Positions 1 through 59,695 of a DNA stretch of 59,695 bases are shown here, piece after piece (the stretch's first letter is position 1; each line of letters starts with the position of its first letter). The position numbers and the translations under genes are program-made. Below the pieces are notes generated by a model. It ran no database searches, was not told the origin of the DNA, and worked only from the letters and a program-made list of their open reading frames with translations. Origin of the DNA: Utricularia gibba (lineage: Eukaryota > Streptophyta > Magnoliopsida > Lamiales > Lentibulariaceae); assembly GCA_002189035.1 (NCBI GenBank), contig NEEC01000037.1, positions 1 to 59,695 of the forward strand, read 5' to 3'.

Positions 1-2091
1 TTGTCTTCAGACCGGAATGTCCTTCTTCGAGGTTCACTTCATTGTGGTGCACTCGGGTTGTTCCGCTTGTATTTCCTCACGAGAGGAGATACGTTTGTGT
101 CCTCCTTCACTTCATGGAAAGATGTGGGAGCACGCAGCAGATTATGGAGATTTGAAACAGAACACACATCACGAGGCAACCTAACGACGCAGCAACCAGC
201 CCGACCTCGGTCTACCTGGAGCACCATCAATGAGCATGGCGTTGGAAGTGGCATACTCTACATGCAAAACGTAACCACCACCTCCTCTGACGTATGCTCG
301 GTTCTCCTTGTAGGTGGAGTGGATGGTGGTCCCGATGACGCGCCTCCTACATGCACCTCGAACCACGCAGGTAATGCAAGCACACGCAACATCATGCGTC
401 TTCACTCCACAGCAGGAGGCTCCATGCATGTTTCTAACAGCATCGATCATTCGCTCCCCTTCATTTCGAGCTTCACGAGATGGCTGGAATACCATCGAAA
501 CCCTGCATATCTTTCCTGGAGCACCCGCCCAAGTGCGACAAAGCTCCTATTTTCTTAGGACATCCGCGTCATGGCCATTCTTCGTCTCAACTTGTTTTCC
601 CAGAGTGGGCTCGAAGGCGACGATCCGTTAACATGCAGCAAAGGAAGCCAACACTCGCCAACAGAAGGTCACGCTTTGCGGAAACCATGCTCTCTAAAAG
701 GCATTGCATAACAATCCGAACGAGCTCACCAGCAGGAACTCAGGGAACGTGAGTTGGGACATGATGAAAGGGAAGTATGAGGCGAATTCGCATTCCAATG
801 TTATCACTATTTGCGATCCCAAAATTGAATGCAAAAGTTCGTAGCAGAGAGGCTGCAAAAAACTACAGAAATCGGTTCTCGAAGGCCGTACCAGCATTCC
901 AACATGAGGGGCACACGCAAAGGGATCCTTGGAGCAACAAACGGTGGTACGCATACGCGACCAGGGTTGCGCCCAAAGTCATCGATCCTGGATCGCGGCG
1001 TTGTGAACGTCGTTTTCACAATCGTGTAGCTGTGTAGAACCATTCAAGCTGTAGAATGCAAGGTGCGCCTACATGTCCGGTGGTTCGAAGGAGCGTTCAT
1101 CCGCATGAGGTTTCTGCGAGTCCAAGGGTTGGAATGCAGTCAATTAGCCATGGGAGTAAGAAAAAAAGACGAACAAGTCGAGAAACCCTCCAAAAGGGCG
1201 CGGTGTCTAGAACACCTCCTTTGAGAATGGAGGGCGGATGGAACTTGCTCCACATGCCGCGAATGGAGATATGCATACGAAAAAACACCAACATCGGGTC
1301 ACCGACGTCGTTGCCAAGGAACTCTCTACAAGCACCGTGTGACGACCTCCTTTGCAGCTATTGGATCCCCCTGCGGAGTGTCTCCGTACCTCGAAAAAAC
1401 GAGCTTTCTACGGTAGCTCGTTTTCAGGAGCGCATGGCTCTTGAAACTCAGCACATGGATTCGCAATGATGGCAAGGGAGAGCACGTCCAATGGCGTAGT
1501 TACCGCGCCGCAATCGCATTCGAGGAGAAAAGAAGTTGTTTGGAAAAGAATTGGGCATCAAGGAAGACCGTTCAAATAGGCTCACGAAATTTGGAATTGG
1601 AGCAGCAGTACGTGTGACTTGTGTTGCTCCACCATTATGTGCGTCGATGGGTGTAGCGTGTTTGCGCAGTTTCACAAGGATACAGGGTGGCGAACAGTAG
1701 TTTGCAATAAGCATGAAGCGGGGGTACCGCTTGTGCACAAAAAGCTATAAAAGCTGTCCTTGTATAATTTCCCATGGGTATGAACCAGGTGCCGGGTTCA
1801 CACGCAAGCCTTCAGGTGAATCTACGTGACGATATTCATTCCAAGCTCCGTCGGATAGTGCCACCCTCGATAGCCAGCATATCAATGCTATCTTGACAGG
1901 CTGCTGACGGGAATCGACAGTCCCCGAGCTCACTTTTTGCTACATGGATTTAAAGAAGTTGAGTAGCTTATGTTTGTATGCAGAACACGAGAAGTCCCCA
2001 TCCGTCGCAGAAAAGGGGCGTGGATAGATGTGAGTGTTGCCACTCCCTTCTCTATGACCTTAAAATCGTGTATTTGTGTGCTTCTTGCGGT
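1..2091 (+). repeat. Repeat copy 1, edge variant
   Basis: Full-length copy of 2,091 bp. It differs from the consensus in two visible ways. Base 831 is G where nearly all other copies have C, a variant shared only with copy 29. The G run at 1720-1724 has five G rather than six, which is shared with copy 27. At unit position 1102 it has the majority C. The window begins inside the 223-codon ORF of this unit, so only its last 185 codons (1-558) are present here. Confidence 0.95.
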
Positions 2092-4182
2092 TTGTCTTCA
2101 GACCGGAATGTCCTTCTTCGAGGTTCACTTCATTGTGGTGCACTCGGGTTGTTCCGCTTGTATTTCCTCACGAGAGGAGATACGTTTGTGTCCTCCTTCA
2201 CTTCATGGAAAGATGTGGGAGCACGCAGCAGATTATGGAGATTTGAAACAGAACACACATCACGAGGCAACCTAACGACGCAGCAACCAGCCCGACCTCG
2301 GTCTACCTGGAGCACCATCAATGAGCATGGCGTTGGAAGTGGCATACTCTACATGCAAAACGTAACCACCACCTCCTCTGACGTATGCTCGGTTCTCCTT
2401 GTAGGTGGAGTGGATGGTGGTCCCGATGACGCGCCTCCTACATGCACCTCGAACCACGCAGGTAATGCAAGCACACGCAACATCATGCGTCTTCACTCCA
2501 CAGCAGGAGGCTCCATGCATGTTTCTAACAGCATCGATCATTCGCTCCCCTTCATTTCGAGCTTCACGAGATGGCTGGAATACCATCGAAACCCTGCATA
2601 TCTTTCCTGGAGCACCCGCCCAAGTGCGACAAAGCTCCTATTTTCTTAGGACATCCGCGTCATGGCCATTCTTCGTCTCAACTTGTTTTCCCAGAGTGGG
2701 CTCGAAGGCGACGATCCGTTAACATGCAGCAAAGGAAGCCAACACTCGCCAACAGAAGGTCACGCTTTGCGGAAACCATGCTCTCTAAAAGGCATTGCAT
2801 AACAATCCGAACGAGCTCACCAGCAGGAACTCAGGGAACGTGAGTTGGGACATGATGAAAGGGAAGTATGAGGCGAATTCGCATTCCAATGTTATCACTA
2901 TTTGCGATCCCAAAATTGAATCCAAAAGTTCGTAGCAGAGAGGCTGCAAAAAACTACAGAAATCGGTTCTCGAAGGCCGTACCAGCATTCCAACATGAGG
3001 GGCACACGCAAAGGGATCCTTGGAGCAACAAACGGTGGTACGCATACGCGACCAGGGTTGCGCCCAAAGTCATCGATCCTGGATCGCGGCGTTGTGAACG
3101 TCGTTTTCACAATCGTGTAGCTGTGTAGAACCATTCAAGCTGTAGAATGCAAGGTGCGCCTACATGTCCGGTGGTTCGAAGGAGCGTTCATCGCATGAGG
3201 TTTCTGCGAGTCCAAGGGTTGGAATGCAGTCAATTAGCCATGGGAGTAAGAAAAAAAGACGAACAAGTCGAGAAACCCTCCAAAAGGGCGCGGTGTCTAG
3301 AACACCTCCTTTGAGAATGGAGGGCGGATGGAACTTGCTCCACATGCCGCGAATGGAGATATGCATACGAAAAAACACCAACATCGGGTCACCGACGTCG
3401 TTGCCAAGGAACTCTCTACAAGCACCGTGTGACGACCTCCTTTGCAGCTATTGGATCCCCCTGCGGAGTGTCTCCGTACCTCGAAAAAACGAGCTTTCTA
3501 CGGTAGCTCGTTTTCAGGAGCGCATGGCTCTTGAAACTCAGCACATGGATTCGCAATGATGGCAAGGGAGAGCACGTCCAATGGCGTAGTTACCGCGCCG
3601 CAATCGCATTCGAGGAGAAAAGAAGTTGTTTGGAAAAGAATTGGGCATCAAGGAAGACCGTTCAAATAGGCTCACGAAATTTGGAATTGGAGCAGCAGTA
3701 CGTGTGACTTGTGTTGCTCCACCATTATGTGCGTCGATGGGTGTAGCGTGTTTGCGCAGTTTCACAAGGATACAGGGTGGCGAACAGTAGTTTGCAATAA
3801 GCATGAAGCGGGGGGTACCGCTTGTGCACAAAAAGCTATAAAAGCTGTCCTTGTATAATTTCCCATGGGTATGAACCAGGTGCCGGGTTCACACGCAAGC
3901 CTTCAGGTGAATCTACGTGACGATATTCATTCCAAGCTCCGTCGGATAGTGCCACCCTCGATAGCCAGCATATCAATGCTATCTTGACAGGCTGCTGACG
4001 GGAATCGACAGTCCCCGAGCTCACTTTTTGCTACATGGATTTAAAGAAGTTGAGTAGCTTATGTTTGTATGCAGAACACGAGAAGTCCCCATCCGTCGCA
4101 GAAAAGGGGCGTGGATAGATGTGAGTGTTGCCACTCCCTTCTCTATGACCTTAAAATCGTGTATTTGTGTGCTTCTTGCGGT
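2092..4182 (+). repeat. Repeat copy 2, one-base deletion type
   Basis: Length 2,091. One C is missing near 3192-3193 (CATCGCATG instead of CATCCGCATG), the same allele as copies 4 and 5. The deletion moves the upstream frame of the downstream ORF. That ORF now opens at 3164 and runs 131 codons instead of opening at the equivalent of 5238 with 137 codons. The opposite-strand ORF lengthens from 65 to 74 codons. Confidence 0.95.
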
Positions 4183-5164
4183 TTGTCTTCAGACCGGAAT
4201 GTCCTTCTTCGAGGTTCACTTCATTGTGGTGCACTCGGGTTGTTCCGCTTGTATTTCCTCACGAGAGGAGATACGTTTGTGTCCTCCTTCACTTCATGGA
4301 AAGATGTGGGAGCACGCAGCAGATTATGGAGATTTGAAACAGAACACACATCACGAGGCAACCTAACGACGCAGCAACCAGCCCGACCTCGGTCTACCTG
4401 GAGCACCATCAATGAGCATGGCGTTGGAAGTGGCATACTCTACATGCAAAACGTAACCACCACCTCCTCTGACGTATGCTCGGTTCTCCTTGTAGGTGGA
4501 GTGGATGGTGGTCCCGATGACGCGCCTCCTACATGCACCTCGAACCACGCAGGTAATGCAAGCACACGCAACATCATGCGTCTTCACTCCACAGCAGGAG
4601 GCTCCATGCATGTTTCTAACAGCATCGATCATTCGCTCCCCTTCATTTCGAGCTTCACGAGATGGCTGGAATACCATCGAAACCCTGCATATCTTTCCTG
4701 GAGCACCCGCCCAAGTGCGACAAAGCTCCTATTTTCTTAGGACATCCGCGTCATGGCCATTCTTCGTCTCAACTTGTTTTCCCAGAGTGGGCTCGAAGGC
4801 GACGATCCGTTAACATGCAGCAAAGGAAGCCAACACTCGCCAACAGAAGGTCACGCTTTGCGGAAACCATGCTCTCTAAAAGGCATTGCATAACAATCCG
4901 AACGAGCTCACCAGCAGGAACTCAGGGAACGTGAGTTGGGACATGATGAAAGGGAAGTATGAGGCGAATTCGCATTCCAATGTTATCACTATTTGCGATC
5001 CCAAAATTGAATCCAAAAGTTCGTAGCAGAGAGGCTGCAAAAAACTACAGAAATCGGTTCTCGAAGGCCGTACCAGCATTCCAACATGAGGGGCACACGC
5101 AAAGGGATCCTTGGAGCAACAAACGGTGGTACGCATACGCGACCAGGGTTGCGCCCAAAGTCAT

Positions 5165-5177
5165 CGATCCTGGATCG
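5165..5177. repeat. 13-bp interrupted palindrome
   Basis: CGATCC, one T, then GGATCG form a perfect six-pair dyad around a single central base. It lies six bases before the hairpin at 5183. It might be a protein-binding dyad, but no function is implied by the sequence alone. Present in every copy that reaches this position. Confidence 0.5.
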
Positions 5178-5182
5178 CGGCG

Positions 5183-5203
5183 TTGTGAACGTCGTTTTCA
5201 CAA
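5183..5203. repeat. Hairpin, 7-bp stem and 7-base loop
   Basis: TTGTGAA (5183-5189) and TTCACAA (5197-5203) are perfectly complementary around the loop CGTCGTT. A flanking G-T pair could extend the stem by one wobble. The stem is AT-rich, so it is weak as RNA. Together with the palindrome at 5165-5177 it makes a compact 39-bp dyad region. It could be a cruciform or binding site, or chance. Confidence 0.45.
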
Positions 5204-5237
5204 TCGTGTAGCTGTGTAGAACCATTCAAGCTGTAGA

Positions 5238-5651
5238 ATGCAAGGTGCGCCTACATGTCCGGTGGTTCGAAGGAGCGTTCATCCGCATGAGGTTTCTGCG
5301 AGTCCAAGGGTTGGAATGCAGTCAATTAGCCATGGGAGTAAGAAAAAAAGACGAACAAGTCGAGAAACCCTCCAAAAGGGCGCGGTGTCTAGAACACCTC
5401 CTTTGAGAATGGAGGGCGGATGGAACTTGCTCCACATGCCGCGAATGGAGATATGCATACGAAAAAACACCAACATCGGGTCACCGACGTCGTTGCCAAG
5501 GAACTCTCTACAAGCACCGTGTGACGACCTCCTTTGCAGCTATTGGATCCCCCTGCGGAGTGTCTCCGTACCTCGAAAAAACGAGCTTTCTACGGTAGCT
5601 CGTTTTCAGGAGCGCATGGCTCTTGAAACTCAGCACATGGATTCGCAATGA
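5238..5651 (+). CDS. Doubtful 137-aa ORF spanning two hairpin clusters
   Basis: It opens at ATG 5238 and stops at TGA 5649-5651. I do not recognise it. Residues near 33-40 (GSKKKRRTSR) would read as a nuclear-localisation-like basic cluster, but the DNA there is an A-rich tract with seven A in a row, so the Lys run may be only compositional. In copies 2, 4 and 5 one missing C swaps the N-terminal 14 or so residues for a different frame starting MSGGSKERSS (131 codons) while leaving the rest open. In copies 25 and 29 Pro becomes Arg near residue 16. The frame contains both hairpin clusters (5368-5415 and 5554-5624). Tolerance of a frame change and overlap with structure argue against coding. 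Confidence 0.1.
   Translation: MQGAPTCPVVRRSVHPHEVSASPRVGMQSISHGSKKKRRTSRETLQKGAVSRTPPLRMEGGWNLLHMPRMEICIRKNTNIGSPTSLPRNSLQAPCDDLLCSYWIPLRSVSVPRKNELSTVARFQERMALETQHMDSQ
5368..5415. other. Cluster of three short hairpins, two mutually exclusive
   Basis: Three dyads lie nearly end to end. CCCT/AGGG spans 5368-5380 with a five-base loop. GGTGT/ACACC spans 5384-5398 around CTAGA, almost a palindrome over an XbaI site. CCTCC/GGAGG spans 5397-5415 with a nine-base loop. The last two share CC at 5397-5398, so an RNA could fold one or the other. Stems of four or five pairs are common by chance. The clustering just upstream of the stronger hairpins at 5554-5624 is what makes it worth recording. Confidence 0.3.
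5554..5624 (+). terminator. Terminator-like cluster of three hairpins with A and T tracts
   Basis: Hairpin 1 (5554-5570) has a seven-pair stem with one G-T and the triloop TGT. Hairpin 2 (5578-5606) is a perfect ten-pair stem AAAACGAGCT/AGCTCGTTTT with a nine-base loop TTCTACGGT. Its A tract and T tract would make it look like a bidirectional factor-independent terminator, and TTTT could also stop RNA polymerase III. Hairpin 3 (5608-5624) has six pairs with one G-T and the loop GCATG. TACGG in loop 2 is complementary to CCGTA in the 3' arm of hairpin 1, so competing pairing is possible. From the TATA box of one unit this cluster lies about 1.74 kb downstream, near the end of a unit-length transcript. 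Function is inferred. The dyads are seen directly. Confidence 0.4.
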
Positions 5652-5928
5652 TGGCAAGGGAGAGCACGTCCAATGGCGTAGTTACCGCGCCGCAATCGCA
5701 TTCGAGGAGAAAAGAAGTTGTTTGGAAAAGAATTGGGCATCAAGGAAGACCGTTCAAATAGGCTCACGAAATTTGGAATTGGAGCAGCAGTACGTGTGAC
5801 TTGTGTTGCTCCACCATTATGTGCGTCGATGGGTGTAGCGTGTTTGCGCAGTTTCACAAGGATACAGGGTGGCGAACAGTAGTTTGCAATAAGCATGAAG
5901 CGGGGGGTACCGCTTGTGCACAAAAAGC
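5652..5928. other. Spacer between hairpin cluster and TATA box
   Basis: About 280 bp with only a 97-codon open frame on the minus strand (5630-5923), which has no recognisable product. Purine-rich on the + strand at 5704-5750. The G run at 5902-5907 varies in length, with six G in most copies and five in copies 1 and 27. I see no gene. Confidence 0.5.
5914..5923. promoter_or_regulatory. 10-bp perfect palindrome just upstream of the TATA box
   Basis: TTGTGCACAA is a perfect 10-bp palindrome ending six bases before TATAAAAG. It is also close to a second small palindrome, GGTACC, in the G-rich tract at 5902-5910. A dyad at this place could be a dimeric factor site, but I know no matching factor and a 10-mer palindrome can occur by chance. 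It recurs in every complete copy. Confidence 0.25.
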
Positions 5929-5936
5929 TATAAAAG
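5929..5936 (+). promoter_or_regulatory. TATA-box-like element, one per repeat
   Basis: TATAAAAG in the context AGCTATAAAAGCTG matches the classical RNA polymerase II TATA consensus. It would place initiation roughly 25-35 bases downstream (about 5955-5970), at or just past the first ATG at 5957, and about 225 bp before the 223-codon ORF. It recurs in each complete copy (1746, 3837, 5929 and so on to 58217), 28 times in all, and is intact even in copy 28. A TATAAT string follows at 5946-5951, but no bacterial -35 box is at a suitable distance. Promoter activity is inferred. An 8-mer of this kind is not rare by chance. Confidence 0.35.
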
Positions 5937-5956
5937 CTGTCCTTGTATAATTTCCC

Positions 5957-6079
5957 ATGGGTATGAACCAGGTGCCGGGTTCACACGCAAGCCTTCAGGT
6001 GAATCTACGTGACGATATTCATTCCAAGCTCCGTCGGATAGTGCCACCCTCGATAGCCAGCATATCAATGCTATCTTGA
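5957..6079 (+). CDS. Candidate 40-aa ORF immediately downstream of the TATA box
   Basis: It starts at ATG in CCCATGGG, a good eukaryotic initiation context, with a second in-frame ATG two codons later, and stops at TGA 6077-6079. The predicted peptide begins MGMNQVPGSH and ends SISMLS. It is basic in the middle (KLRR) with no signal peptide or known motif. It is the first ATG after the TATA box and lies wholly upstream of the 223-codon ORF, so it could be a short coding sequence, an upstream ORF, or nothing. In copy 26 it loses two codons in frame. In copy 28 the middle is rewritten. The opposite strand carries an overlapping 62-codon frame (5928-6116), so openness alone is weak evidence. Recurs in each complete copy. 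Confidence 0.15.
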   Translation: MGMNQVPGSHASLQVNLRDDIHSKLRRIVPPSIASISMLS

Positions 6080-6160
6080 CAGGCTGCTGACGGGAATCGA
6101 CAGTCCCCGAGCTCACTTTTTGCTACATGGATTTAAAGAAGTTGAGTAGCTTATGTTTGT
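6080..6160. other. Leader before the 223-aa ORF, deleted in copy 28
   Basis: This stretch holds GACGGGAATCGACAGTCCCC, in which GGGA and TCCC can pair, then a T5 run and ATTTAAAG. In copy 28 almost all of the matching segment, together with the ORF start codon, is replaced by six bases at 58356-58361. No promoter or RNA gene is evident beyond the TATA box farther upstream. Confidence 0.35.
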
Positions 6161-6832
6161 ATGCAGAACACGAGAAGTCCCCATCCGTCGCAGAAAAGGG
6201 GCGTGGATAGATGTGAGTGTTGCCACTCCCTTCTCTATGACCTTAAAATCGTGTATTTGTGTGCTTCTTGCGGTTTGTCTTCAGACCGGAATGTCCTTCT
6301 TCGAGGTTCACTTCATTGTGGTGCACTCGGGTTGTTCCGCTTGTATTTCCTCACGAGAGGAGATACGTTTGTGTCCTCCTTCACTTCATGGAAAGATGTG
6401 GGAGCACGCAGCAGATTATGGAGATTTGAAACAGAACACACATCACGAGGCAACCTAACGACGCAGCAACCAGCCCGACCTCGGTCTACCTGGAGCACCA
6501 TCAATGAGCATGGCGTTGGAAGTGGCATACTCTACATGCAAAACGTAACCACCACCTCCTCTGACGTATGCTCGGTTCTCCTTGTAGGTGGAGTGGATGG
6601 TGGTCCCGATGACGCGCCTCCTACATGCACCTCGAACCACGCAGGTAATGCAAGCACACGCAACATCATGCGTCTTCACTCCACAGCAGGAGGCTCCATG
6701 CATGTTTCTAACAGCATCGATCATTCGCTCCCCTTCATTTCGAGCTTCACGAGATGGCTGGAATACCATCGAAACCCTGCATATCTTTCCTGGAGCACCC
6801 GCCCAAGTGCGACAAAGCTCCTATTTTCTTAG
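6161..6832 (+). CDS. Longest ORF of the unit: unrecognised 223-aa protein with a CxxC-x12-CxxC motif
   Basis: I do not recognise this protein. Residues 18-21 and 34-37 form C-x2-C-x12-C-x2-C followed by Gly, with the hydrophobic stretch YDLKIVYL before the second knuckle. This arrangement resembles a zinc ribbon, but there is no family match. The rest is rich in Ser, Thr and Arg and has no clear transmembrane segment. Its ATG is at 6161; an in-frame TGA lies at 6143-6145. At 50% GC an open run of this length has a chance of only a few per thousand per unit. However, a 101-codon frame (6153-6458) and a 105-codon frame (6588-6905) on this strand, and 71- and 104-codon frames on the other, are open here too, so few stops may be compositional. 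Intact starts are at 1978, 4069, 6161, 8252, 10343 and 12435, then every 2,092 bp to 52183, and 54269 (26 copies). A partial lies at 1-558. Confidence 0.22.
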   Translation: MQNTRSPHPSQKRGVDRCECCHSLLYDLKIVYLCASCGLSSDRNVLLRGSLHCGALGLFRLYFLTRGDTFVSSFTSWKDVGARSRLWRFETEHTSRGNLTTQQPARPRSTWSTINEHGVGSGILYMQNVTTTSSDVCSVLLVGGVDGGPDDAPPTCTSNHAGNASTRNIMRLHSTAGGSMHVSNSIDHSLPFISSFTRWLEYHRNPAYLSWSTRPSATKLLFS

Positions 6833-8365
6833 GACATCCGCGTCATGGCCATTCTTCGTCTCAACTTGTTTTCCCAGAGTGGGCTCGAAGGCGACGATCC
6901 GTTAACATGCAGCAAAGGAAGCCAACACTCGCCAACAGAAGGTCACGCTTTGCGGAAACCATGCTCTCTAAAAGGCATTGCATAACAATCCGAACGAGCT
7001 CACCAGCAGGAACTCAGGGAACGTGAGTTGGGACATGATGAAAGGGAAGTATGAGGCGAATTCGCATTCCAATGTTATCACTATTTGCGATCCCAAAATT
7101 GAATCCAAAAGTTCGTAGCAGAGAGGCTGCAAAAAACTACAGAAATCGGTTCTCGAAGGCCGTACCAGCATTCCAACATGAGGGGCACACGCAAAGGGAT
7201 CCTTGGAGCAACAAACGGTGGTACGCATACGCGACCAGGGTTGCGCCCAAAGTCATCGATCCTGGATCGCGGCGTTGTGAACGTCGTTTTCACAATCGTG
7301 TAGCTGTGTAGAACCATTCAAGCTGTAGAATGCAAGGTGCGCCTACATGTCCGGTGGTTCGAAGGAGCGTTCATCGCATGAGGTTTCTGCGAGTCCAAGG
7401 GTTGGAATGCAGTCAATTAGCCATGGGAGTAAGAAAAAAAGACGAACAAGTCGAGAAACCCTCCAAAAGGGCGCGGTGTCTAGAACACCTCCTTTGAGAA
7501 TGGAGGGCGGATGGAACTTGCTCCACATGCCGCGAATGGAGATATGCATACGAAAAAACACCAACATCGGGTCACCGACGTCGTTGCCAAGGAACTCTCT
7601 ACAAGCACCGTGTGACGACCTCCTTTGCAGCTATTGGATCCCCCTGCGGAGTGTCTCCGTACCTCGAAAAAACGAGCTTTCTACGGTAGCTCGTTTTCAG
7701 GAGCGCATGGCTCTTGAAACTCAGCACATGGATTCGCAATGATGGCAAGGGAGAGCACGTCCAATGGCGTAGTTACCGCGCCGCAATCGCATTCGAGGAG
7801 AAAAGAAGTTGTTTGGAAAAGAATTGGGCATCAAGGAAGACCGTTCAAATAGGCTCACGAAATTTGGAATTGGAGCAGCAGTACGTGTGACTTGTGTTGC
7901 TCCACCATTATGTGCGTCGATGGGTGTAGCGTGTTTGCGCAGTTTCACAAGGATACAGGGTGGCGAACAGTAGTTTGCAATAAGCATGAAGCGGGGGGTA
8001 CCGCTTGTGCACAAAAAGCTATAAAAGCTGTCCTTGTATAATTTCCCATGGGTATGAACCAGGTGCCGGGTTCACACGCAAGCCTTCAGGTGAATCTACG
8101 TGACGATATTCATTCCAAGCTCCGTCGGATAGTGCCACCCTCGATAGCCAGCATATCAATGCTATCTTGACAGGCTGCTGACGGGAATCGACAGTCCCCG
8201 AGCTCACTTTTTGCTACATGGATTTAAAGAAGTTGAGTAGCTTATGTTTGTATGCAGAACACGAGAAGTCCCCATCCGTCGCAGAAAAGGGGCGTGGATA
8301 GATGTGAGTGTTGCCACTCCCTTCTCTATGACCTTAAAATCGTGTATTTGTGTGCTTCTTGCGGT
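6275..8365 (+). repeat. Repeat copy 4, one-base deletion type
   Basis: Length 2,091. It carries the same missing C as copy 2 (near 7375-7376) and otherwise reads like the consensus. It is separated from copy 2 by a copy with the majority allele, so the deletion allele is interspersed rather than contiguous. Confidence 0.95.
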
Positions 8366-10456
8366 TTGTCTTCAGACCGGAATGTCCTTCTTCGAGGTTC
8401 ACTTCATTGTGGTGCACTCGGGTTGTTCCGCTTGTATTTCCTCACGAGAGGAGATACGTTTGTGTCCTCCTTCACTTCATGGAAAGATGTGGGAGCACGC
8501 AGCAGATTATGGAGATTTGAAACAGAACACACATCACGAGGCAACCTAACGACGCAGCAACCAGCCCGACCTCGGTCTACCTGGAGCACCATCAATGAGC
8601 ATGGCGTTGGAAGTGGCATACTCTACATGCAAAACGTAACCACCACCTCCTCTGACGTATGCTCGGTTCTCCTTGTAGGTGGAGTGGATGGTGGTCCCGA
8701 TGACGCGCCTCCTACATGCACCTCGAACCACGCAGGTAATGCAAGCACACGCAACATCATGCGTCTTCACTCCACAGCAGGAGGCTCCATGCATGTTTCT
8801 AACAGCATCGATCATTCGCTCCCCTTCATTTCGAGCTTCACGAGATGGCTGGAATACCATCGAAACCCTGCATATCTTTCCTGGAGCACCCGCCCAAGTG
8901 CGACAAAGCTCCTATTTTCTTAGGACATCCGCGTCATGGCCATTCTTCGTCTCAACTTGTTTTCCCAGAGTGGGCTCGAAGGCGACGATCCGTTAACATG
9001 CAGCAAAGGAAGCCAACACTCGCCAACAGAAGGTCACGCTTTGCGGAAACCATGCTCTCTAAAAGGCATTGCATAACAATCCGAACGAGCTCACCAGCAG
9101 GAACTCAGGGAACGTGAGTTGGGACATGATGAAAGGGAAGTATGAGGCGAATTCGCATTCCAATGTTATCACTATTTGCGATCCCAAAATTGAATCCAAA
9201 AGTTCGTAGCAGAGAGGCTGCAAAAAACTACAGAAATCGGTTCTCGAAGGCCGTACCAGCATTCCAACATGAGGGGCACACGCAAAGGGATCCTTGGAGC
9301 AACAAACGGTGGTACGCATACGCGACCAGGGTTGCGCCCAAAGTCATCGATCCTGGATCGCGGCGTTGTGAACGTCGTTTTCACAATCGTGTAGCTGTGT
9401 AGAACCATTCAAGCTGTAGAATGCAAGGTGCGCCTACATGTCCGGTGGTTCGAAGGAGCGTTCATCGCATGAGGTTTCTGCGAGTCCAAGGGTTGGAATG
9501 CAGTCAATTAGCCATGGGAGTAAGAAAAAAAGACGAACAAGTCGAGAAACCCTCCAAAAGGGCGCGGTGTCTAGAACACCTCCTTTGAGAATGGAGGGCG
9601 GATGGAACTTGCTCCACATGCCGCGAATGGAGATATGCATACGAAAAAACACCAACATCGGGTCACCGACGTCGTTGCCAAGGAACTCTCTACAAGCACC
9701 GTGTGACGACCTCCTTTGCAGCTATTGGATCCCCCTGCGGAGTGTCTCCGTACCTCGAAAAAACGAGCTTTCTACGGTAGCTCGTTTTCAGGAGCGCATG
9801 GCTCTTGAAACTCAGCACATGGATTCGCAATGATGGCAAGGGAGAGCACGTCCAATGGCGTAGTTACCGCGCCGCAATCGCATTCGAGGAGAAAAGAAGT
9901 TGTTTGGAAAAGAATTGGGCATCAAGGAAGACCGTTCAAATAGGCTCACGAAATTTGGAATTGGAGCAGCAGTACGTGTGACTTGTGTTGCTCCACCATT
10001 ATGTGCGTCGATGGGTGTAGCGTGTTTGCGCAGTTTCACAAGGATACAGGGTGGCGAACAGTAGTTTGCAATAAGCATGAAGCGGGGGGTACCGCTTGTG
10101 CACAAAAAGCTATAAAAGCTGTCCTTGTATAATTTCCCATGGGTATGAACCAGGTGCCGGGTTCACACGCAAGCCTTCAGGTGAATCTACGTGACGATAT
10201 TCATTCCAAGCTCCGTCGGATAGTGCCACCCTCGATAGCCAGCATATCAATGCTATCTTGACAGGCTGCTGACGGGAATCGACAGTCCCCGAGCTCACTT
10301 TTTGCTACATGGATTTAAAGAAGTTGAGTAGCTTATGTTTGTATGCAGAACACGAGAAGTCCCCATCCGTCGCAGAAAAGGGGCGTGGATAGATGTGAGT
10401 GTTGCCACTCCCTTCTCTATGACCTTAAAATCGTGTATTTGTGTGCTTCTTGCGGT
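8366..10456 (+). repeat. Repeat copy 5, one-base deletion type
   Basis: Length 2,091 with the missing-C allele near 9466-9467. It is the last copy of the variable left edge. From here the array enters the uniform block. Confidence 0.95.
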
Positions 10457-49400: not shown

Positions 49401-50204
49401 CAACATCGGGTCACCGACGTCGTTGCCAAGGAACTCTCTACAAGCACCGTGTGACGACCTCCTTTGCAGCTATTGGATCCCCCTGCGGAGTGTCTCCGTA
49501 CCTCGAAAAAACGAGCTTTCTACGGTAGCTCGTTTTCAGGAGCGCATGGCTCTTGAAACTCAGCACATGGATTCGCAATGATGGCAAGGGAGAGCACGTC
49601 CAATGGCGTAGTTACCGCGCCGCAATCGCATTCGAGGAGAAAAGAAGTTGTTTGGAAAAGAATTGGGCATCAAGGAAGACCGTTCAAATAGGCTCACGAA
49701 ATTTGGAATTGGAGCAGCAGTACGTGTGACTTGTGTTGCTCCACCATTATGTGCGTCGATGGGTGTAGCGTGTTTGCGCAGTTTCACAAGGATACAGGGT
49801 GGCGAACAGTAGTTTGCAATAAGCATGAAGCGGGGGGTACCGCTTGTGCACAAAAAGCTATAAAAGCTGTCCTTGTATAATTTCCCATGGGTATGAACCA
49901 GGTGCCGGGTTCACACGCAAGCCTTCAGGTGAATCTACGTGACGATATTCATTCCAAGCTCCGTCGGATAGTGCCACCCTCGATAGCCAGCATATCAATG
50001 CTATCTTGACAGGCTGCTGACGGGAATCGACAGTCCCCGAGCTCACTTTTTGCTACATGGATTTAAAGAAGTTGAGTAGCTTATGTTTGTATGCAGAACA
50101 CGAGAAGTCCCCATCCGTCGCAGAAAAGGGGCGTGGATAGATGTGAGTGTTGCCACTCCCTTCTCTATGACCTTAAAATCGTGTATTTGTGTGCTTCTTG
50201 CGGT
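10457..50204 (+). repeat. Uniform block: repeat copies 6-24, 19 consensus-type units
   Basis: Nineteen consecutive units of exactly 2,092 bp start at 10457, 12549, 14641, 16733, 18825, 20917, 23009, 25101, 27193, 29285, 31377, 33469, 35561, 37653, 39745, 41837, 43929, 46021 and 48113. All have the majority state at every site that varies elsewhere: C at unit position 831, C at 1102, a six-G run at 1720-1725, and an intact GCCGGG at 1792-1797. Overlapping ORFs on both strands cover nearly the whole unit and translate identically in each copy, so even silent changes in one frame would usually show in another. This is strong but indirect evidence of identity. I did not align every base. Confidence 0.93.
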
Positions 50205-52296
50205 TTGTCTTCAGACCGGAATGTCCTTCTTCGAGGTTCACTTCATTGTGGTGCACTCGGGTTGTTCCGCTTGTATTTCCTCACGAGAGGAGATACGTTT
50301 GTGTCCTCCTTCACTTCATGGAAAGATGTGGGAGCACGCAGCAGATTATGGAGATTTGAAACAGAACACACATCACGAGGCAACCTAACGACGCAGCAAC
50401 CAGCCCGACCTCGGTCTACCTGGAGCACCATCAATGAGCATGGCGTTGGAAGTGGCATACTCTACATGCAAAACGTAACCACCACCTCCTCTGACGTATG
50501 CTCGGTTCTCCTTGTAGGTGGAGTGGATGGTGGTCCCGATGACGCGCCTCCTACATGCACCTCGAACCACGCAGGTAATGCAAGCACACGCAACATCATG
50601 CGTCTTCACTCCACAGCAGGAGGCTCCATGCATGTTTCTAACAGCATCGATCATTCGCTCCCCTTCATTTCGAGCTTCACGAGATGGCTGGAATACCATC
50701 GAAACCCTGCATATCTTTCCTGGAGCACCCGCCCAAGTGCGACAAAGCTCCTATTTTCTTAGGACATCCGCGTCATGGCCATTCTTCGTCTCAACTTGTT
50801 TTCCCAGAGTGGGCTCGAAGGCGACGATCCGTTAACATGCAGCAAAGGAAGCCAACACTCGCCAACAGAAGGTCACGCTTTGCGGAAACCATGCTCTCTA
50901 AAAGGCATTGCATAACAATCCGAACGAGCTCACCAGCAGGAACTCAGGGAACGTGAGTTGGGACATGATGAAAGGGAAGTATGAGGCGAATTCGCATTCC
51001 AATGTTATCACTATTTGCGATCCCAAAATTGAATCCAAAAGTTCGTAGCAGAGAGGCTGCAAAAAACTACAGAAATCGGTTCTCGAAGGCCGTACCAGCA
51101 TTCCAACATGAGGGGCACACGCAAAGGGATCCTTGGAGCAACAAACGGTGGTACGCATACGCGACCAGGGTTGCGCCCAAAGTCATCGATCCTGGATCGC
51201 GGCGTTGTGAACGTCGTTTTCACAATCGTGTAGCTGTGTAGAACCATTCAAGCTGTAGAATGCAAGGTGCGCCTACATGTCCGGTGGTTCGAAGGAGCGT
51301 TCATCGGCATGAGGTTTCTGCGAGTCCAAGGGTTGGAATGCAGTCAATTAGCCATGGGAGTAAGAAAAAAAGACGAACAAGTCGAGAAACCCTCCAAAAG
51401 GGCGCGGTGTCTAGAACACCTCCTTTGAGAATGGAGGGCGGATGGAACTTGCTCCACATGCCGCGAATGGAGATATGCATACGAAAAAACACCAACATCG
51501 GGTCACCGACGTCGTTGCCAAGGAACTCTCTACAAGCACCGTGTGACGACCTCCTTTGCAGCTATTGGATCCCCCTGCGGAGTGTCTCCGTACCTCGAAA
51601 AAACGAGCTTTCTACGGTAGCTCGTTTTCAGGAGCGCATGGCTCTTGAAACTCAGCACATGGATTCGCAATGATGGCAAGGGAGAGCACGTCCAATGGCG
51701 TAGTTACCGCGCCGCAATCGCATTCGAGGAGAAAAGAAGTTGTTTGGAAAAGAATTGGGCATCAAGGAAGACCGTTCAAATAGGCTCACGAAATTTGGAA
51801 TTGGAGCAGCAGTACGTGTGACTTGTGTTGCTCCACCATTATGTGCGTCGATGGGTGTAGCGTGTTTGCGCAGTTTCACAAGGATACAGGGTGGCGAACA
51901 GTAGTTTGCAATAAGCATGAAGCGGGGGGTACCGCTTGTGCACAAAAAGCTATAAAAGCTGTCCTTGTATAATTTCCCATGGGTATGAACCAGGTGCCGG
52001 GTTCACACGCAAGCCTTCAGGTGAATCTACGTGACGATATTCATTCCAAGCTCCGTCGGATAGTGCCACCCTCGATAGCCAGCATATCAATGCTATCTTG
52101 ACAGGCTGCTGACGGGAATCGACAGTCCCCGAGCTCACTTTTTGCTACATGGATTTAAAGAAGTTGAGTAGCTTATGTTTGTATGCAGAACACGAGAAGT
52201 CCCCATCCGTCGCAGAAAAGGGGCGTGGATAGATGTGAGTGTTGCCACTCCCTTCTCTATGACCTTAAAATCGTGTATTTGTGTGCTTCTTGCGGT
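50205..52296 (+). repeat. Repeat copy 25, single substitution
   Basis: Length 2,092. Base 51306 is G instead of C (CATCGGCATG). Only copy 29 shares this third allele at unit position 1102. It changes Pro to Arg in the 137-codon frame and Gly to Arg at the end of the opposing 65-codon frame. It is the first departure from consensus after the uniform block. Confidence 0.95.
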
Positions 52297-54382
52297 TTGT
52301 CTTCAGACCGGAATGTCCTTCTTCGAGGTTCACTTCATTGTGGTGCACTCGGGTTGTTCCGCTTGTATTTCCTCACGAGAGGAGATACGTTTGTGTCCTC
52401 CTTCACTTCATGGAAAGATGTGGGAGCACGCAGCAGATTATGGAGATTTGAAACAGAACACACATCACGAGGCAACCTAACGACGCAGCAACCAGCCCGA
52501 CCTCGGTCTACCTGGAGCACCATCAATGAGCATGGCGTTGGAAGTGGCATACTCTACATGCAAAACGTAACCACCACCTCCTCTGACGTATGCTCGGTTC
52601 TCCTTGTAGGTGGAGTGGATGGTGGTCCCGATGACGCGCCTCCTACATGCACCTCGAACCACGCAGGTAATGCAAGCACACGCAACATCATGCGTCTTCA
52701 CTCCACAGCAGGAGGCTCCATGCATGTTTCTAACAGCATCGATCATTCGCTCCCCTTCATTTCGAGCTTCACGAGATGGCTGGAATACCATCGAAACCCT
52801 GCATATCTTTCCTGGAGCACCCGCCCAAGTGCGACAAAGCTCCTATTTTCTTAGGACATCCGCGTCATGGCCATTCTTCGTCTCAACTTGTTTTCCCAGA
52901 GTGGGCTCGAAGGCGACGATCCGTTAACATGCAGCAAAGGAAGCCAACACTCGCCAACAGAAGGTCACGCTTTGCGGAAACCATGCTCTCTAAAAGGCAT
53001 TGCATAACAATCCGAACGAGCTCACCAGCAGGAACTCAGGGAACGTGAGTTGGGACATGATGAAAGGGAAGTATGAGGCGAATTCGCATTCCAATGTTAT
53101 CACTATTTGCGATCCCAAAATTGAATCCAAAAGTTCGTAGCAGAGAGGCTGCAAAAAACTACAGAAATCGGTTCTCGAAGGCCGTACCAGCATTCCAACA
53201 TGAGGGGCACACGCAAAGGGATCCTTGGAGCAACAAACGGTGGTACGCATACGCGACCAGGGTTGCGCCCAAAGTCATCGATCCTGGATCGCGGCGTTGT
53301 GAACGTCGTTTTCACAATCGTGTAGCTGTGTAGAACCATTCAAGCTGTAGAATGCAAGGTGCGCCTACATGTCCGGTGGTTCGAAGGAGCGTTCATCCGC
53401 ATGAGGTTTCTGCGAGTCCAAGGGTTGGAATGCAGTCAATTAGCCATGGGAGTAAGAAAAAAAGACGAACAAGTCGAGAAACCCTCCAAAAGGGCGCGGT
53501 GTCTAGAACACCTCCTTTGAGAATGGAGGGCGGATGGAACTTGCTCCACATGCCGCGAATGGAGATATGCATACGAAAAAACACCAACATCGGGTCACCG
53601 ACGTCGTTGCCAAGGAACTCTCTACAAGCACCGTGTGACGACCTCCTTTGCAGCTATTGGATCCCCCTGCGGAGTGTCTCCGTACCTCGAAAAAACGAGC
53701 TTTCTACGGTAGCTCGTTTTCAGGAGCGCATGGCTCTTGAAACTCAGCACATGGATTCGCAATGATGGCAAGGGAGAGCACGTCCAATGGCGTAGTTACC
53801 GCGCCGCAATCGCATTCGAGGAGAAAAGAAGTTGTTTGGAAAAGAATTGGGCATCAAGGAAGACCGTTCAAATAGGCTCACGAAATTTGGAATTGGAGCA
53901 GCAGTACGTGTGACTTGTGTTGCTCCACCATTATGTGCGTCGATGGGTGTAGCGTGTTTGCGCAGTTTCACAAGGATACAGGGTGGCGAACAGTAGTTTG
54001 CAATAAGCATGAAGCGGGGGGTACCGCTTGTGCACAAAAAGCTATAAAAGCTGTCCTTGTATAATTTCCCATGGGTATGAACCAGGTTTCACACGCAAGC
54101 CTTCAGGTGAATCTACGTGACGATATTCATTCCAAGCTCCGTCGGATAGTGCCACCCTCGATAGCCAGCATATCAATGCTATCTTGACAGGCTGCTGACG
54201 GGAATCGACAGTCCCCGAGCTCACTTTTTGCTACATGGATTTAAAGAAGTTGAGTAGCTTATGTTTGTATGCAGAACACGAGAAGTCCCCATCCGTCGCA
54301 GAAAAGGGGCGTGGATAGATGTGAGTGTTGCCACTCCCTTCTCTATGACCTTAAAATCGTGTATTTGTGTGCTTCTTGCGGT
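52297..54382 (+). repeat. Repeat copy 26, 6-bp deletion
   Basis: Length 2,086. GCCGGG (unit 1792-1797) is missing between 54087 and 54088, giving CCAGGTTTCACACG. The loss is a multiple of three. The 40-codon + strand ORF loses Pro-Gly (Val-Pro-Gly becomes Val), and the opposing 62-codon frame drops to 60 codons without a frameshift. The rest reads as consensus. Confidence 0.95.
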
Positions 54383-56473
54383 TTGTCTTCAGACCGGAAT
54401 GTCCTTCTTCGAGGTTCACTTCATTGTGGTGCACTCGGGTTGTTCCGCTTGTATTTCCTCACGAGAGGAGATACGTTTGTGTCCTCCTTCACTTCATGGA
54501 AAGATGTGGGAGCACGCAGCAGATTATGGAGATTTGAAACAGAACACACATCACGAGGCAACCTAACGACGCAGCAACCAGCCCGACCTCGGTCTACCTG
54601 GAGCACCATCAATGAGCATGGCGTTGGAAGTGGCATACTCTACATGCAAAACGTAACCACCACCTCCTCTGACGTATGCTCGGTTCTCCTTGTAGGTGGA
54701 GTGGATGGTGGTCCCGATGACGCGCCTCCTACATGCACCTCGAACCACGCAGGTAATGCAAGCACACGCAACATCATGCGTCTTCACTCCACAGCAGGAG
54801 GCTCCATGCATGTTTCTAACAGCATCGATCATTCGCTCCCCTTCATTTCGAGCTTCACGAGATGGCTGGAATACCATCGAAACCCTGCATATCTTTCCTG
54901 GAGCACCCGCCCAAGTGCGACAAAGCTCCTATTTTCTTAGGACATCCGCGTCATGGCCATTCTTCGTCTCAACTTGTTTTCCCAGAGTGGGCTCGAAGGC
55001 GACGATCCGTTAACATGCAGCAAAGGAAGCCAACACTCGCCAACAGAAGGTCACGCTTTGCGGAAACCATGCTCTCTAAAAGGCATTGCATAACAATCCG
55101 AACGAGCTCACCAGCAGGAACTCAGGGAACGTGAGTTGGGACATGATGAAAGGGAAGTATGAGGCGAATTCGCATTCCAATGTTATCACTATTTGCGATC
55201 CCAAAATTGAATCCAAAAGTTCGTAGCAGAGAGGCTGCAAAAAACTACAGAAATCGGTTCTCGAAGGCCGTACCAGCATTCCAACATGAGGGGCACACGC
55301 AAAGGGATCCTTGGAGCAACAAACGGTGGTACGCATACGCGACCAGGGTTGCGCCCAAAGTCATCGATCCTGGATCGCGGCGTTGTGAACGTCGTTTTCA
55401 CAATCGTGTAGCTGTGTAGAACCATTCAAGCTGTAGAATGCAAGGTGCGCCTACATGTCCGGTGGTTCGAAGGAGCGTTCATCCGCATGAGGTTTCTGCG
55501 AGTCCAAGGGTTGGAATGCAGTCAATTAGCCATGGGAGTAAGAAAAAAAGACGAACAAGTCGAGAAACCCTCCAAAAGGGCGCGGTGTCTAGAACACCTC
55601 CTTTGAGAATGGAGGGCGGATGGAACTTGCTCCACATGCCGCGAATGGAGATATGCATACGAAAAAACACCAACATCGGGTCACCGACGTCGTTGCCAAG
55701 GAACTCTCTACAAGCACCGTGTGACGACCTCCTTTGCAGCTATTGGATCCCCCTGCGGAGTGTCTCCGTACCTCGAAAAAACGAGCTTTCTACGGTAGCT
55801 CGTTTTCAGGAGCGCATGGCTCTTGAAACTCAGCACATGGATTCGCAATGATGGCAAGGGAGAGCACGTCCAATGGCGTAGTTACCGCGCCGCAATCGCA
55901 TTCGAGGAGAAAAGAAGTTGTTTGGAAAAGAATTGGGCATCAAGGAAGACCGTTCAAATAGGCTCACGAAATTTGGAATTGGAGCAGCAGTACGTGTGAC
56001 TTGTGTTGCTCCACCATTATGTGCGTCGATGGGTGTAGCGTGTTTGCGCAGTTTCACAAGGATACAGGGTGGCGAACAGTAGTTTGCAATAAGCATGAAG
56101 CGGGGGTACCGCTTGTGCACAAAAAGCTATAAAAGCTGTCCTTGTATAATTTCCCATGGGTATGAACCAGGTGCCGGGTTCACACGCAAGCCTTCAGGTG
56201 AATCTACGTGACGATATTCATTCCAAGCTCCGTCGGATAGTGCCACCCTCGATAGCCAGCATATCAATGCTATCTTGACAGGCTGCTGACGGGAATCGAC
56301 AGTCCCCGAGCTCACTTTTTGCTACATGGATTTAAAGAAGTTGAGTAGCTTATGTTTGTATGCAGAACACGAGAAGTCCCCATCCGTCGCAGAAAAGGGG
56401 CGTGGATAGATGTGAGTGTTGCCACTCCCTTCTCTATGACCTTAAAATCGTGTATTTGTGTGCTTCTTGCGGT
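54383..56473 (+). repeat. Repeat copy 27, five-G variant
   Basis: Length 2,091. The G run at 56102-56106 has five G, as in copy 1. No other difference from the consensus was noticed. The 223-codon ORF that starts in the tail of this copy (56360) runs into the damaged copy 28. Confidence 0.95.
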
Positions 56474-56911
56474 TTGTCTTCAGACCGGAATGTCCTTCTT
56501 CGAGGTTCACTTCATTGTGGTGCACTCGGGTTGTTCCGCTTGTATTTCCTCACGAGAGGAGATACGTTTGTGTCCTCCTTCACTTCATGGAAAGATGTGG
56601 GAGCACGCAGCAGATTATGGAGATTTGAAACAGAACACACATCACGAGGCAACCTAACGACGCAGCAACCAGCCCGACCTCGGTCTACCTGGAGCACCAT
56701 CAATGAGCATGGCGTTGGAAGTGGCATACTCTACATGCAAAACGTAACCACCACCTCCTCTGACGTATGCTCGGTTCTCCTTGTAGGTGGAGTGGATGGT
56801 GGTCCCGATGACGCGCCTCCTACATGCACCTCGAACCACGCAGGTAATGCAAGCACACGCAAACATCATGCGTCTTCACTCCACAGCAGGAGGCTCCATG
56901 CATGTTTCTAA
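56360..56911 (+). pseudogene. Frameshifted copy of the 223-aa ORF
   Basis: The start and first 167 codons match the intact ORF. An extra A at 56861-56863 then shifts the frame and it ends after 183 codons. Downstream in the same copy a missing C and a missing GC add further shifts. If the ORF is a gene this copy is broken. If copy 28 is low-quality consensus, the break is a sequencing error. Confidence 0.25.
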
Positions 56912-58465
56912 CAGCATCGATCATTCGCTCCCTTCATTTCGAGCTTCACGAGATGGCTGGAATACCATCGAAACCCTGCATATCTTTCCTGGAGCACCCG
57001 CCCAAGTGCGACAAAGCTCCTATTTTCTTAGGACATCCGCGTCATGGCCATTCTTCGTCTCAACTTGTTTTCCCAGAGTGGGCTCGAAGGCGACGATCCG
57101 TTAACATGCAGCAAAGGAAGCCAACACTCGCCAACAGAAGGTCACTTTGCGGAAACCATGCTCTCTAAAAGGCATTGCATAACAATCCGAACGAGCTCAC
57201 CAGCAGGAACTCAGGGAACGTGAGTTGGGACATGATGAAAGGGAAGTATGAGGCGAATTCGCATTCCAATGTTATCACTATTTGCGATCCCAAAATTGAA
57301 TCAAAAGTTCGTAGCAGAGAGGCTGCAAAAAACTACAGAAATCGGTTCTCGAAGGCCGTACCAGCATTCCAACATGAGGGGCACACGCAAAGGGATCCTT
57401 GGAGCAACAAACGGTGGTACGCATACGCGACCAGGGTTGCGCCCAAAGTCATCGATCCTGGATCGCGGCGTTGTGAACGTCGTTTTCACAATCGTGTAGC
57501 TGTGTAGAACCATTCAAGCTGTAGAATGCAAGGTGCGCCTACATGTCCGGTGGTTCGAAGGAGCGTTCATCCGCATGAGGTTTCTGCGAGTCCAAGGGTT
57601 GGAATGCAGTCAATTAGCCATGGGAGTAAGAAAAAAAGACGAACAAGTCGAGAAACCCTCCAAAAGGGCGCGGTGTCTAGAACACCTCCTTTGAGAATGG
57701 AGGGCGGATGGAACTTGCTCCACATGCCGCGAATGGAGATATGCATACGAAAAAACACCAACATCGGGTCACCGACGTCGTTGCCAAGGAACTCTCTACA
57801 AGCACCGTGTGACGACCTCCTTTGCAGCTATTGGATCCCCCTGCGGAGTGTCTCCGTACCTCGAAAAAACGAGCTTTCTACGGTAGCTCGTTTTCAGGAG
57901 CGCATGGCTCTTGAAACTCAGCACATGGATTCGCAATGATGGCAAGGGAGAGCACGTCCAATGGCGTAGTTACCGCGCCGCAATCGCATTCGAGGAGAAA
58001 AGAAGTTGTTTGGAAAAGAATTGGGCATCAAGGAAGACCGTTCAAATAGGCTCACGAAATTTGGAATTGGAGCAGCAGTACGTGTGACTTGTGTTGCTCC
58101 ACCATTATGTGCGTCGATGGGTGTAGCGTGTTTGCGCAGTTTCACAAGGATACAGGGTGGCGAACAGTAGTTTGCAATAAGCATGAAGCGGGGGGTACCG
58201 CTTGTGCACAAAAAGCTATAAAAGCTGTCCTTGTATAATTTCCCATGGGTATGAACCAGGTTCCGACAAAGCCTTCAGGTGAATCTACGTGACGATATTC
58301 ATTCCAAGCTCCGTCGGATAGTGCCACCCTCGATAGCCAGCATATCAATGCTATCACTTAGCACGAGAAGTCCCCATCCGTCGCAGAAGGGGCGTGGATA
58401 GATGTGAGTGTTGCCACTCCCTTCTCTATGACCTTAAAATCGTGTATTTGTGTGCTTCTTGCGGT
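56474..58465 (+). repeat. Repeat copy 28, indel-rich degenerate copy
   Basis: Length 1,992, a net loss of 100 bp that I can account for fully. Changes are +1 A at 56861-56863, -1 C at 56930-56932, -2 (GC) after 57145, and -1 C at 57302. At 58261-58269 nine bases replace seventeen. At 58356-58361 six bases (ACTTAG) replace 93. At 58387-58388 there is AA instead of AAAA. Four are one- or two-base indels in or beside short runs, which is also the signature of uncorrected long-read error near a contig end. The two larger replacements are harder to explain that way. Real decay at an array edge and poor consensus quality cannot be separated from this sequence alone. Confidence 0.93.
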
Positions 58466-59023
58466 TTGTCTTCAGACCGGAATGTCCTTCTTCGAGGTTC
58501 ACTTCATTGTGGTGCACTCGGGTTGTTCCGCTTGTATTTCCTCACGAGAGGAGATACGTTTGTGTCCTCCTTCACTTCATGGAAAGATGTGGGAGCACGC
58601 AGCAGATTATGGAGATTTGAAACAGAACACACATCACGAGGCAACCTAACGACGCAGCAACCAGCCCGACCTCGGTCTACCTGGAGCACCATCAATGAGC
58701 ATGGCGTTGGAAGTGGCATACTCTACATGCAAAACGTAACCACCACCTCCTCTGACGTATGCTCGGTTCTCCTTGTAGGTGGAGTGGATGGTGGTCCCGA
58801 TGACGCGCCTCCTACATGCACCTCGAACCACGCAGGTAATGCAAGCACACGCAACATCATGCGTCTTCACTCCACAGCAGGAGGCTCCATGCATGTTTCT
58901 AACAGCATCGATCATTCGCTCCCCTTCATTTCGAGCTTCACGAGATGGCTGGAATACCATCGAAACCCTGCATATCTTTCCTGGAGCACCCGCCCAAGTG
59001 CGACAAAGCTCCTATTTTCTTAG
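58394..59023 (+). CDS. Copy of the 223-aa ORF with its 5' end replaced
   Basis: The net 87-bp loss at 58356-58361 removes the usual ATG and the leader, and a second loss of two A follows. The frame from Val15 (GTG at 58394) onward, including both CxxC pairs, is unchanged to the normal stop, 209 codons. Without the usual ATG the frame has no evident eukaryotic start near its 5' end, so this is best read as a 5'-damaged copy. Confidence 0.2.
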   Translation: MDRCECCHSLLYDLKIVYLCASCGLSSDRNVLLRGSLHCGALGLFRLYFLTRGDTFVSSFTSWKDVGARSRLWRFETEHTSRGNLTTQQPARPRSTWSTINEHGVGSGILYMQNVTTTSSDVCSVLLVGGVDGGPDDAPPTCTSNHAGNASTRNIMRLHSTAGGSMHVSNSIDHSLPFISSFTRWLEYHRNPAYLSWSTRPSATKLLFS

Positions 59024-59695
59024 GACATCCGCGTCATGGCCATTCTTCGTCTCAACTTGTTTTTCCCAGAGTGGGCTCGAAGGCGACGATCCGTTAACAT
59101 GCAGCAAAGGAAGCCAACACTCGCCAACAGAAGGTCACGCTTTGCGGAAACCATGCTCTCTAAAAGGCATTGCATAACAATCCGAACGAGCTCACCAGCA
59201 GGAACTCAGGGAACGTGAGTTGGGACATGATGAAAGGGAAGTATGAGGCGAATTCGCATTCCAATGTTATCACTATTTGCGATCCCAAAATTGAATGCAA
59301 AAGTTCGTAGCAGAGAGGCTGCAAAAAACTACAGAAATCGGTTCTCGAAGGCCGTACCAGCATTCCAACATGAGGGGCACACGCAAAGGGATCCTTGGAG
59401 CAACAAACGGTGGTACGCATACGCGACCAGGGTTGCGCCCAAAGTCATCGATCCTGGATCGCGGCGTTGTGAACGTCGTTTTCACAATCGTGTAGCTGTG
59501 TAGAACCATTCAAGCTGTAGAATGCAAGGTGCGCCTACATGTCCGGTGGTTCGAAGGAGCGTTCATCGGCATGAGGTTTCTGCGAGTCCAAGGGTTGGAA
59601 TGCAGTCAATTAGCCATGGGAGTAAGAAAAAAAGACGAACAAGTCGAGAAACCCTCCAAAAGGGCGCGGTGTCTAGAACACCTCCTTTGAGAATG
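58466..59695 (+). repeat. Repeat copy 29, partial, cut by the window end
   Basis: The first 1,230 bases of a unit. It has an extra T at about 59060-59064 (five T before CCCAGAG instead of four), G at 59297 (unit 831, otherwise only in copy 1) and G at 59568 (unit 1102, otherwise only in copy 25). Sharing separate variants with different distant copies points to exchange among copies or to reads from more than one array. The array probably continues beyond the window. Confidence 0.93.

What the first reader, a model, noticed from the sequence alone, without database searches (positions are those of the whole stretch)
1..59695. A 2.09-kb macrosatellite-like array of at least 28.5 near-identical units with no recognisable gene
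The unit is far longer than typical satellite monomers, has about 50% GC and undepleted CpG, yet contains no known gene, rRNA or transposon part. Near-perfect identity over about 58 kb needs recent amplification or efficient homogenisation. The window holds no unique flank, so the true array is larger.
Basis: partly seen in the sequence, partly recalled or inferred. Interest (0 to 1): 0.7.

Follow-up and report, generated by a model that had tools for sequence, protein, structure and literature searches.

The report
Long-unit tandem satellite DNA contig
The whole stretch is one 2,092-letter DNA unit repeated about 28.6 times head to tail with no recognisable gene, most likely an ordinary long-unit satellite repeat from an unidentified, probably eukaryotic, genome, and its flawless middle and its copy number may owe more to the assembly than to biology.

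Summary
The window is entirely a head-to-tail array: 28 full units plus a 1,230-bp partial; 20 of 28 full units are letter-for-letter the 2,092-bp consensus. GC is 50.3%, CpG observed/expected 0.94. No gene was recognised: nothing in Pfam or NCBIfam at E up to 1, nothing in Rfam at gathering score, a chance-level PHROGs score, no period-3 signal. No relative turned up in the plasmid, phage, E. coli, viral-contig or prokaryote-genome searches made. No eukaryote collection, repeat library, reads or own genome was available, so the source is unidentified.

One point qualifies 'near-perfect identity over 58 kb': all differences lie in the outer five units at each end, while bases 9466-51305 are a perfect block of exactly 20.0 periods, bounded on both sides at one variable site. 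Unit 28 carries ten differences resembling read error. The window's ends are not array ends, so this looks like consensus smoothing or a repeat-graph cycle; recent block amplification is not excluded. Best reading: a long-monomer satellite, a known kind, with unreliable copy number. An unrolled small circle is a rival.

The parts
1..59695 (.). Head-to-tail array of a 2,092-bp unit: 28 full units and a 1,230-bp partial unit; no unique flank. The phase is arbitrary (unit 1 is taken to start at base 1).
4183..6274 (.). One exact consensus unit (unit 3), 2,092 bp; 20 of 28 full units have exactly this sequence.
9466..51305 (.). Perfect block: 41,840 bp, exactly 20.0 periods, without a single difference at lag 2,092; bounded on the left by a deletion at alignment column 1103 (unit 5) and on the right by a substitution at neighbouring column 1104 (unit 25).
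1..10456 (.). Left outer units 1-5; units 1, 2, 4 and 5 carry variants (alignment column 833 C>G in unit 1; column 1103 deletion in units 2, 4 and 5; column 1722 deletion in a run of G in unit 1). Unit 3 is clean.
50205..59695 (.). Right outer units 25-29, all carrying variants (column 1104 C>G in units 25 and 29, 6-bp deletion in unit 26, column 1722 deletion in unit 27, ten differences in unit 28, column 833 C>G and one inserted T in unit 29).
56474..58465 (.). Unit 28, 1,992 bp: ten separate differences, including an 88-base stretch reduced to one base and several 1-2 base indels; looks like poor consensus or a damaged copy.
1978..2649 (+). Longest ATG frame (223 aa), spanning the arbitrary unit junction; judged to be chance.

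Best explanation
The window is a stretch made wholly of a long-monomer (2,092-bp), apparently non-coding satellite (macrosatellite-like) repeat of an unidentified, probably eukaryotic genome. Shown: the tandem arrangement, the pattern of identity, and the lack of recognisable genes. Inferred: the array spread and is kept uniform by the usual recombination-based turnover of tandem repeats (unequal exchange, gene conversion, or excision and re-insertion of circles), so it needs no encoded activity of its own; if it has a role, it is as a heterochromatin or chromosome-structure element. Also inferred: the perfect 20-period middle is largely a product of assembly (reads shorter than the block, consensus smoothing, or a repeat-graph cycle entered and left at alignment columns 1103/1104 of the unit). 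The 28.6 copies are therefore not a biological count.
For: 29 anchors at a regular spacing. 20 of 28 full units exactly equal to the consensus; all nine variant-bearing units lie among the outer ten, and 1e-5 of 200,000 random orders gave a clean run of 19 or more. Perfect block of exactly 20.0 periods bounded at one site. Columns 1103/1104 differ in 5 of 10 outer units and 0 of 19 inner units. The same substitution appears in units far apart (833G in units 1 and 29; 1104G in units 25 and 29), which suggests a real repeat family with variants. No protein or RNA family at a meaningful score; the highest period-3 value of any 351-base window is 2.4, against a mean shuffled maximum of 2.41.
Against: The source organism and chromosomal place are unknown, and no reads were available. 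No repeat library or eukaryote collection was searched, so 'satellite' rests on architecture alone. A recent biological amplification of one 20-unit block would also give an unbroken identical stretch. TpA depletion (72 seen against 128.7 expected) is strong and unexplained. The longest open frame, 228 codons stop to stop, was reached in only 6 of 300 dinucleotide shuffles.
Confidence: 0.66

Rival explanations
1. A small circular molecule of 2.09 kb (plasmid, organelle minicircle or extrachromosomal circle), unrolled by the assembler or replicated as a rolling-circle concatemer.
For: Nearly constant period, perfect middle, no unique flank. Long-read assemblers are reported to stitch small plasmids into concatemers, two successive copies in the passages that I read, and sometimes to circularise small contigs made of repeats (PMC10589936, passages).
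Against: No replication protein recognised in any frame and no DNA match in 72,556 plasmid or 50,697 phage records. Substitutions shared between distant units imply several molecule types, which one clonal circle would not give. 28.6 copies is far more than the doublings described in the passages.
Confidence: 0.2
2. The middle is truly identical: a block of about 20 units of the satellite amplified so recently that no mutation has accumulated, with more varied units on both sides. (Not exclusive of the satellite reading; it replaces only its assembly part.)
For: The perfect block is long and sharply bounded. Stronger homogenisation between nearby units, and very recent expansions giving virtually identical segments, are described for Drosophila (PMC12400953, passages).
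Against: The varied units coincide with the ends of the window, which are not array ends; several variants are run-length or small indels, and unit 28 looks error-ridden.
Confidence: 0.25
3. A tandem gene array whose product (a lineage-specific protein of about 223 aa, spliced short exons, or an RNA) is not in any searched family library.
For: The 228-codon open stretch is longer than the longest in 294 of 300 shuffles. Strong TpA depletion over the first 1,566 bp of the unit, and a TATAAA site at unit position 1747.
Against: No period-3 signal: 1.17 over the frame, and no 351-base window above 2.4, against a mean shuffled maximum of 2.41. No relatives in the collections searched, no Rfam match at gathering score, and no strongly folded stretch: lowest z -2.71 of 84 windows, mean -0.53.
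Confidence: 0.07

Closest known systems
Long-monomer plant satellites (Vicia faba, 17 families with monomers of 687-2033 bp)
   Same: Tandem units about as long as this one (PMC5895790, passages).
   Different: The majority of the V. faba satellites have elevated AT content (same passages), whereas this unit has 50.3% GC. No sequence comparison was possible; chromosomal place unknown here.
Macrosatellites such as human D4Z4 (8 to over 100 units of 3.3 kb)
   Same: Kilobase-scale units in tens of tandem copies (PMC13138017, abstract start in the search listing).
   Different: D4Z4 carries the DUX4 frame (recalled, from no call); no gene was recognised here. Sequences were not compared.
Tandem gene arrays homogenised by local recombination (Drosophila histone cluster)
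   Same: Repeat units kept alike over many copies; hard to assemble (PMC12400953, passages).
   Different: Those units encode genes; none was recognised here.
Assembler concatemers of small plasmids
   Same: Head-to-tail copies of one molecule with no flank (PMC10589936, passages).
   Different: The passages describe two successive copies; here 28.6, with shared variants and no recognised plasmid gene.

Membership tests
Satellite DNA / macrosatellite | Head-to-tail tandem units in a long array | tested here: met
   28 full units plus a partial one
Satellite DNA / macrosatellite | High similarity between units | tested here: met
   20 of 28 full units identical to the consensus; possibly enhanced by assembly
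Satellite DNA / macrosatellite | Non-coding unit (satellite in the strict sense) | tested here: inconclusive
   No family match and no period-3 signal, but the longest frame was reached in only 6 of 300 shuffles
Satellite DNA / macrosatellite | Chromosomal location | not testable with these tools
   No own genome held; no flank in the window
Small circular replicon unrolled | Replication initiator gene | tested here: not met
   No Pfam or NCBIfam match in six frames, PHROGs at chance level only
Small circular replicon unrolled | All units clonal | tested here: inconclusive
   Middle clonal, but shared substitutions between distant outer units
rDNA repeat | rRNA gene in the repeat | tested here: not met
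   No Rfam match at gathering score in the whole window
Toxoplasma B1-type tandem repeat | Sequence similarity to the B1 amplicon (recalled letters) | tested here: not met
   Best local score 23; the best of 100 shuffles scored 30

The most novel reading that the evidence does not exclude
A genuine, very recent amplification of a block of about 20 identical 2.09-kb units of a previously undescribed macrosatellite (TpA-depleted, CpG not depleted), possibly carrying a lineage-specific transcribed element, with homogenisation acting so fast that no mutation has survived over 42 kb.
Probability: 0.12. Interest if true: 0.45.

Novelty: new member of a known kind. Interest (0 to 1): 0.25.

Why it matters
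Arrays of long units are hard to assemble. This window shows how the uniformity and the copy number of such an array could be read wrongly off an assembly: variants cluster at its ends, and the perfect block is a whole number of periods bounded at one site. If the identity were real, it would mark a very recent or very fast homogenisation event.

Tried and rejected
Toxoplasma B1 repeat: rejected. rDNA or other known RNA: no Rfam match at gathering score in the window; in 1-4400 at E up to 5 the only matches were snoZ122 at E 4.1, 23.8 bits against a gathering score of 38, once in each of two units. tRNA: none in 1-6500. Ancestral half-unit duplication: half-against-half score 14, reached by 14 of 60 shuffles; the best ungapped circular lag, 714, gave 28.7% identity against a mean of 25.0% and sd 1.0% over 1,046 lags, not followed further. 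Coding potential: period-3 values inside the range of mononucleotide shuffles. PHROGs 12098 at E 0.55-0.56: chance level. Circovirus-type nonanucleotide, ARS and Pol III B box: none better than 2 mismatches; CENP-B core: none better than 4; motif strings recalled. Telomere, spliced-leader, kinetoplast-minicircle and poly-A signal strings: none found exactly (strings recalled). Bacterial promoter scan: 2 found, 1.4 expected; terminator scan: 4 found, 1.9 expected, sd 1.4. Paper searches on the unit length: two papers for '2092 bp' with 'tandem repeat', off topic by their listing, none for 'macrosatellite' with '2.1 kb' and 'tandem'. Wider searches gave long lists of which only the top was shown; a TpA/dinoflagellate search gave one off-topic listing. 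I make no claim that the unit is unpublished. I made no firm guess at the organism.

Full report
What is there. The window is one head-to-tail array. An anchor at the unit start occurs 29 times; 21 of 28 spacings are 2,092 bases. Aligning all 29 pieces gives a 2,092-bp consensus with 50.3% GC and CpG observed/expected 0.94; 20 of the 28 full units equal it exactly. The last piece is a partial unit of 1,230 bases. There is no unique flank. Tandem Repeats Finder returned nothing; its period limit is 500. Sites below are columns of the alignment, which run two ahead of the consensus position after column 596.

Where the differences lie. Nine of 29 units carry a difference: 1, 2, 4, 5 and 25-29. 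Units 6-24 carry none. Nine variant units all falling in the outer ten positions has a chance of about 1e-6, and a clean run of 19 or more arose in 1e-5 of 200,000 shuffled orders; the choice of 'outer ten' was made after seeing the data. The stretch 9466-51305 matches itself at lag 2,092 without a break: 41,840 bases, exactly 20.0 periods. It is a whole number of periods because the bounding variants sit at neighbouring columns of one site, a deletion at 1103 in unit 5 and a substitution at 1104 in unit 25. That site differs in 5 of 10 outer units and 0 of 19 inner ones. Unit 28 has ten separate differences, including several 1-2 base indels and a net loss of 87 bases in one place.

What this means. 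The ends of the window are not the ends of the array, since both run on in the repeat. Variation that rises just at these ends therefore points to the assembly (if, as the odd length suggests but no call shows, the window is a whole contig): fewer reads, less polishing, or a graph cycle repeated from one entry and exit site. Against a purely technical reading, the same substitutions recur in units far apart (833G in units 1 and 29, 1104G in units 25 and 29), which suggests a real family of variant units. A real recent block amplification remains possible; very recent expansions giving virtually identical, hard-to-resolve segments are described in Drosophila (PMC12400953, passages). In either case the figure of 28.6 copies should not be taken as a biological count.

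What it encodes. Nothing recognisable. Ten of the 14 distinct ATG/GTG/TTG frames of 60 aa or more that one search lists for the first unit gave no Pfam family at E up to 1. All six frames of about one and a half units, with X at stops, gave none in Pfam or NCBIfam, and only a 10-bit PHROGs score at E 0.55. Rfam gave nothing at gathering score in the whole window and a chance-level snoRNA score in each of two units. ARAGORN gave no tRNA in 1-6500. The longest stop-to-stop frame is 228 codons, reached by 6 of 300 dinucleotide shuffles, which is mildly unusual; but it has no period-3 signal and no match among solved structures or plasmids. In viral contigs no stretch matched its patterns; in prokaryote genomes 35 stretches did, and none encodes a relative. 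A second frame (137 aa) had 5 pattern matches in viral contigs, none a relative. There is no clear internal sub-repeat and no strong RNA structure: lowest z -2.71 among 84 windows, mean -0.53.

Where it comes from. No own genome is held. Blastn searches of plasmids and phages (distant mode) and of E. coli genomes (near mode) found nothing, nor did one exact pattern each in viral contigs and prokaryote genomes. A eukaryotic source is inferred from this silence and the architecture; it is not shown. TpA is strongly depleted (72 seen against 128.7 expected), which may be a clue to the organism but was not resolved.

Comparison. Satellites with monomers of 687-2033 bp are known in Vicia faba (PMC5895790, passages); a paper on Lathyrus sativus states that monomers can reach over 5 kb (PMC7004042, passages); the human macrosatellite D4Z4 has 3.3-kb units (PMC13138017, search listing). 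By architecture this is a new member of a known kind. An unrolled small circle has a published analogue in doubled plasmids (PMC10589936, passages), but no replication gene was recognised here and it does not explain the shared variants. The confidences of the rivals overlap: a truly identical middle would leave the satellite reading standing and replace only its assembly part.

Noticed in passing
window 52297-54382 and 56474-58465: Units 26 and 28 carry different changes at the same spot of the unit (alignment columns 1794-1808), a possible hotspot of rearrangement or of sequencing error.
   Followed up: partly
each unit, positions 1-1566 against 1567-2088: TpA is depleted to 0.40-0.55 of expectation over the first three quarters of the unit, but only to about 0.8 in the last quarter, which also holds a TATAAA site at 1747.
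   Followed up: partly
window 1-2092 (any unit): Identical 7-mers recur more often within the unit than in mononucleotide shuffles (207 pairs against a mean of 134); no spacing bin exceeded its maximum in 200 shuffles.
   Followed up: partly
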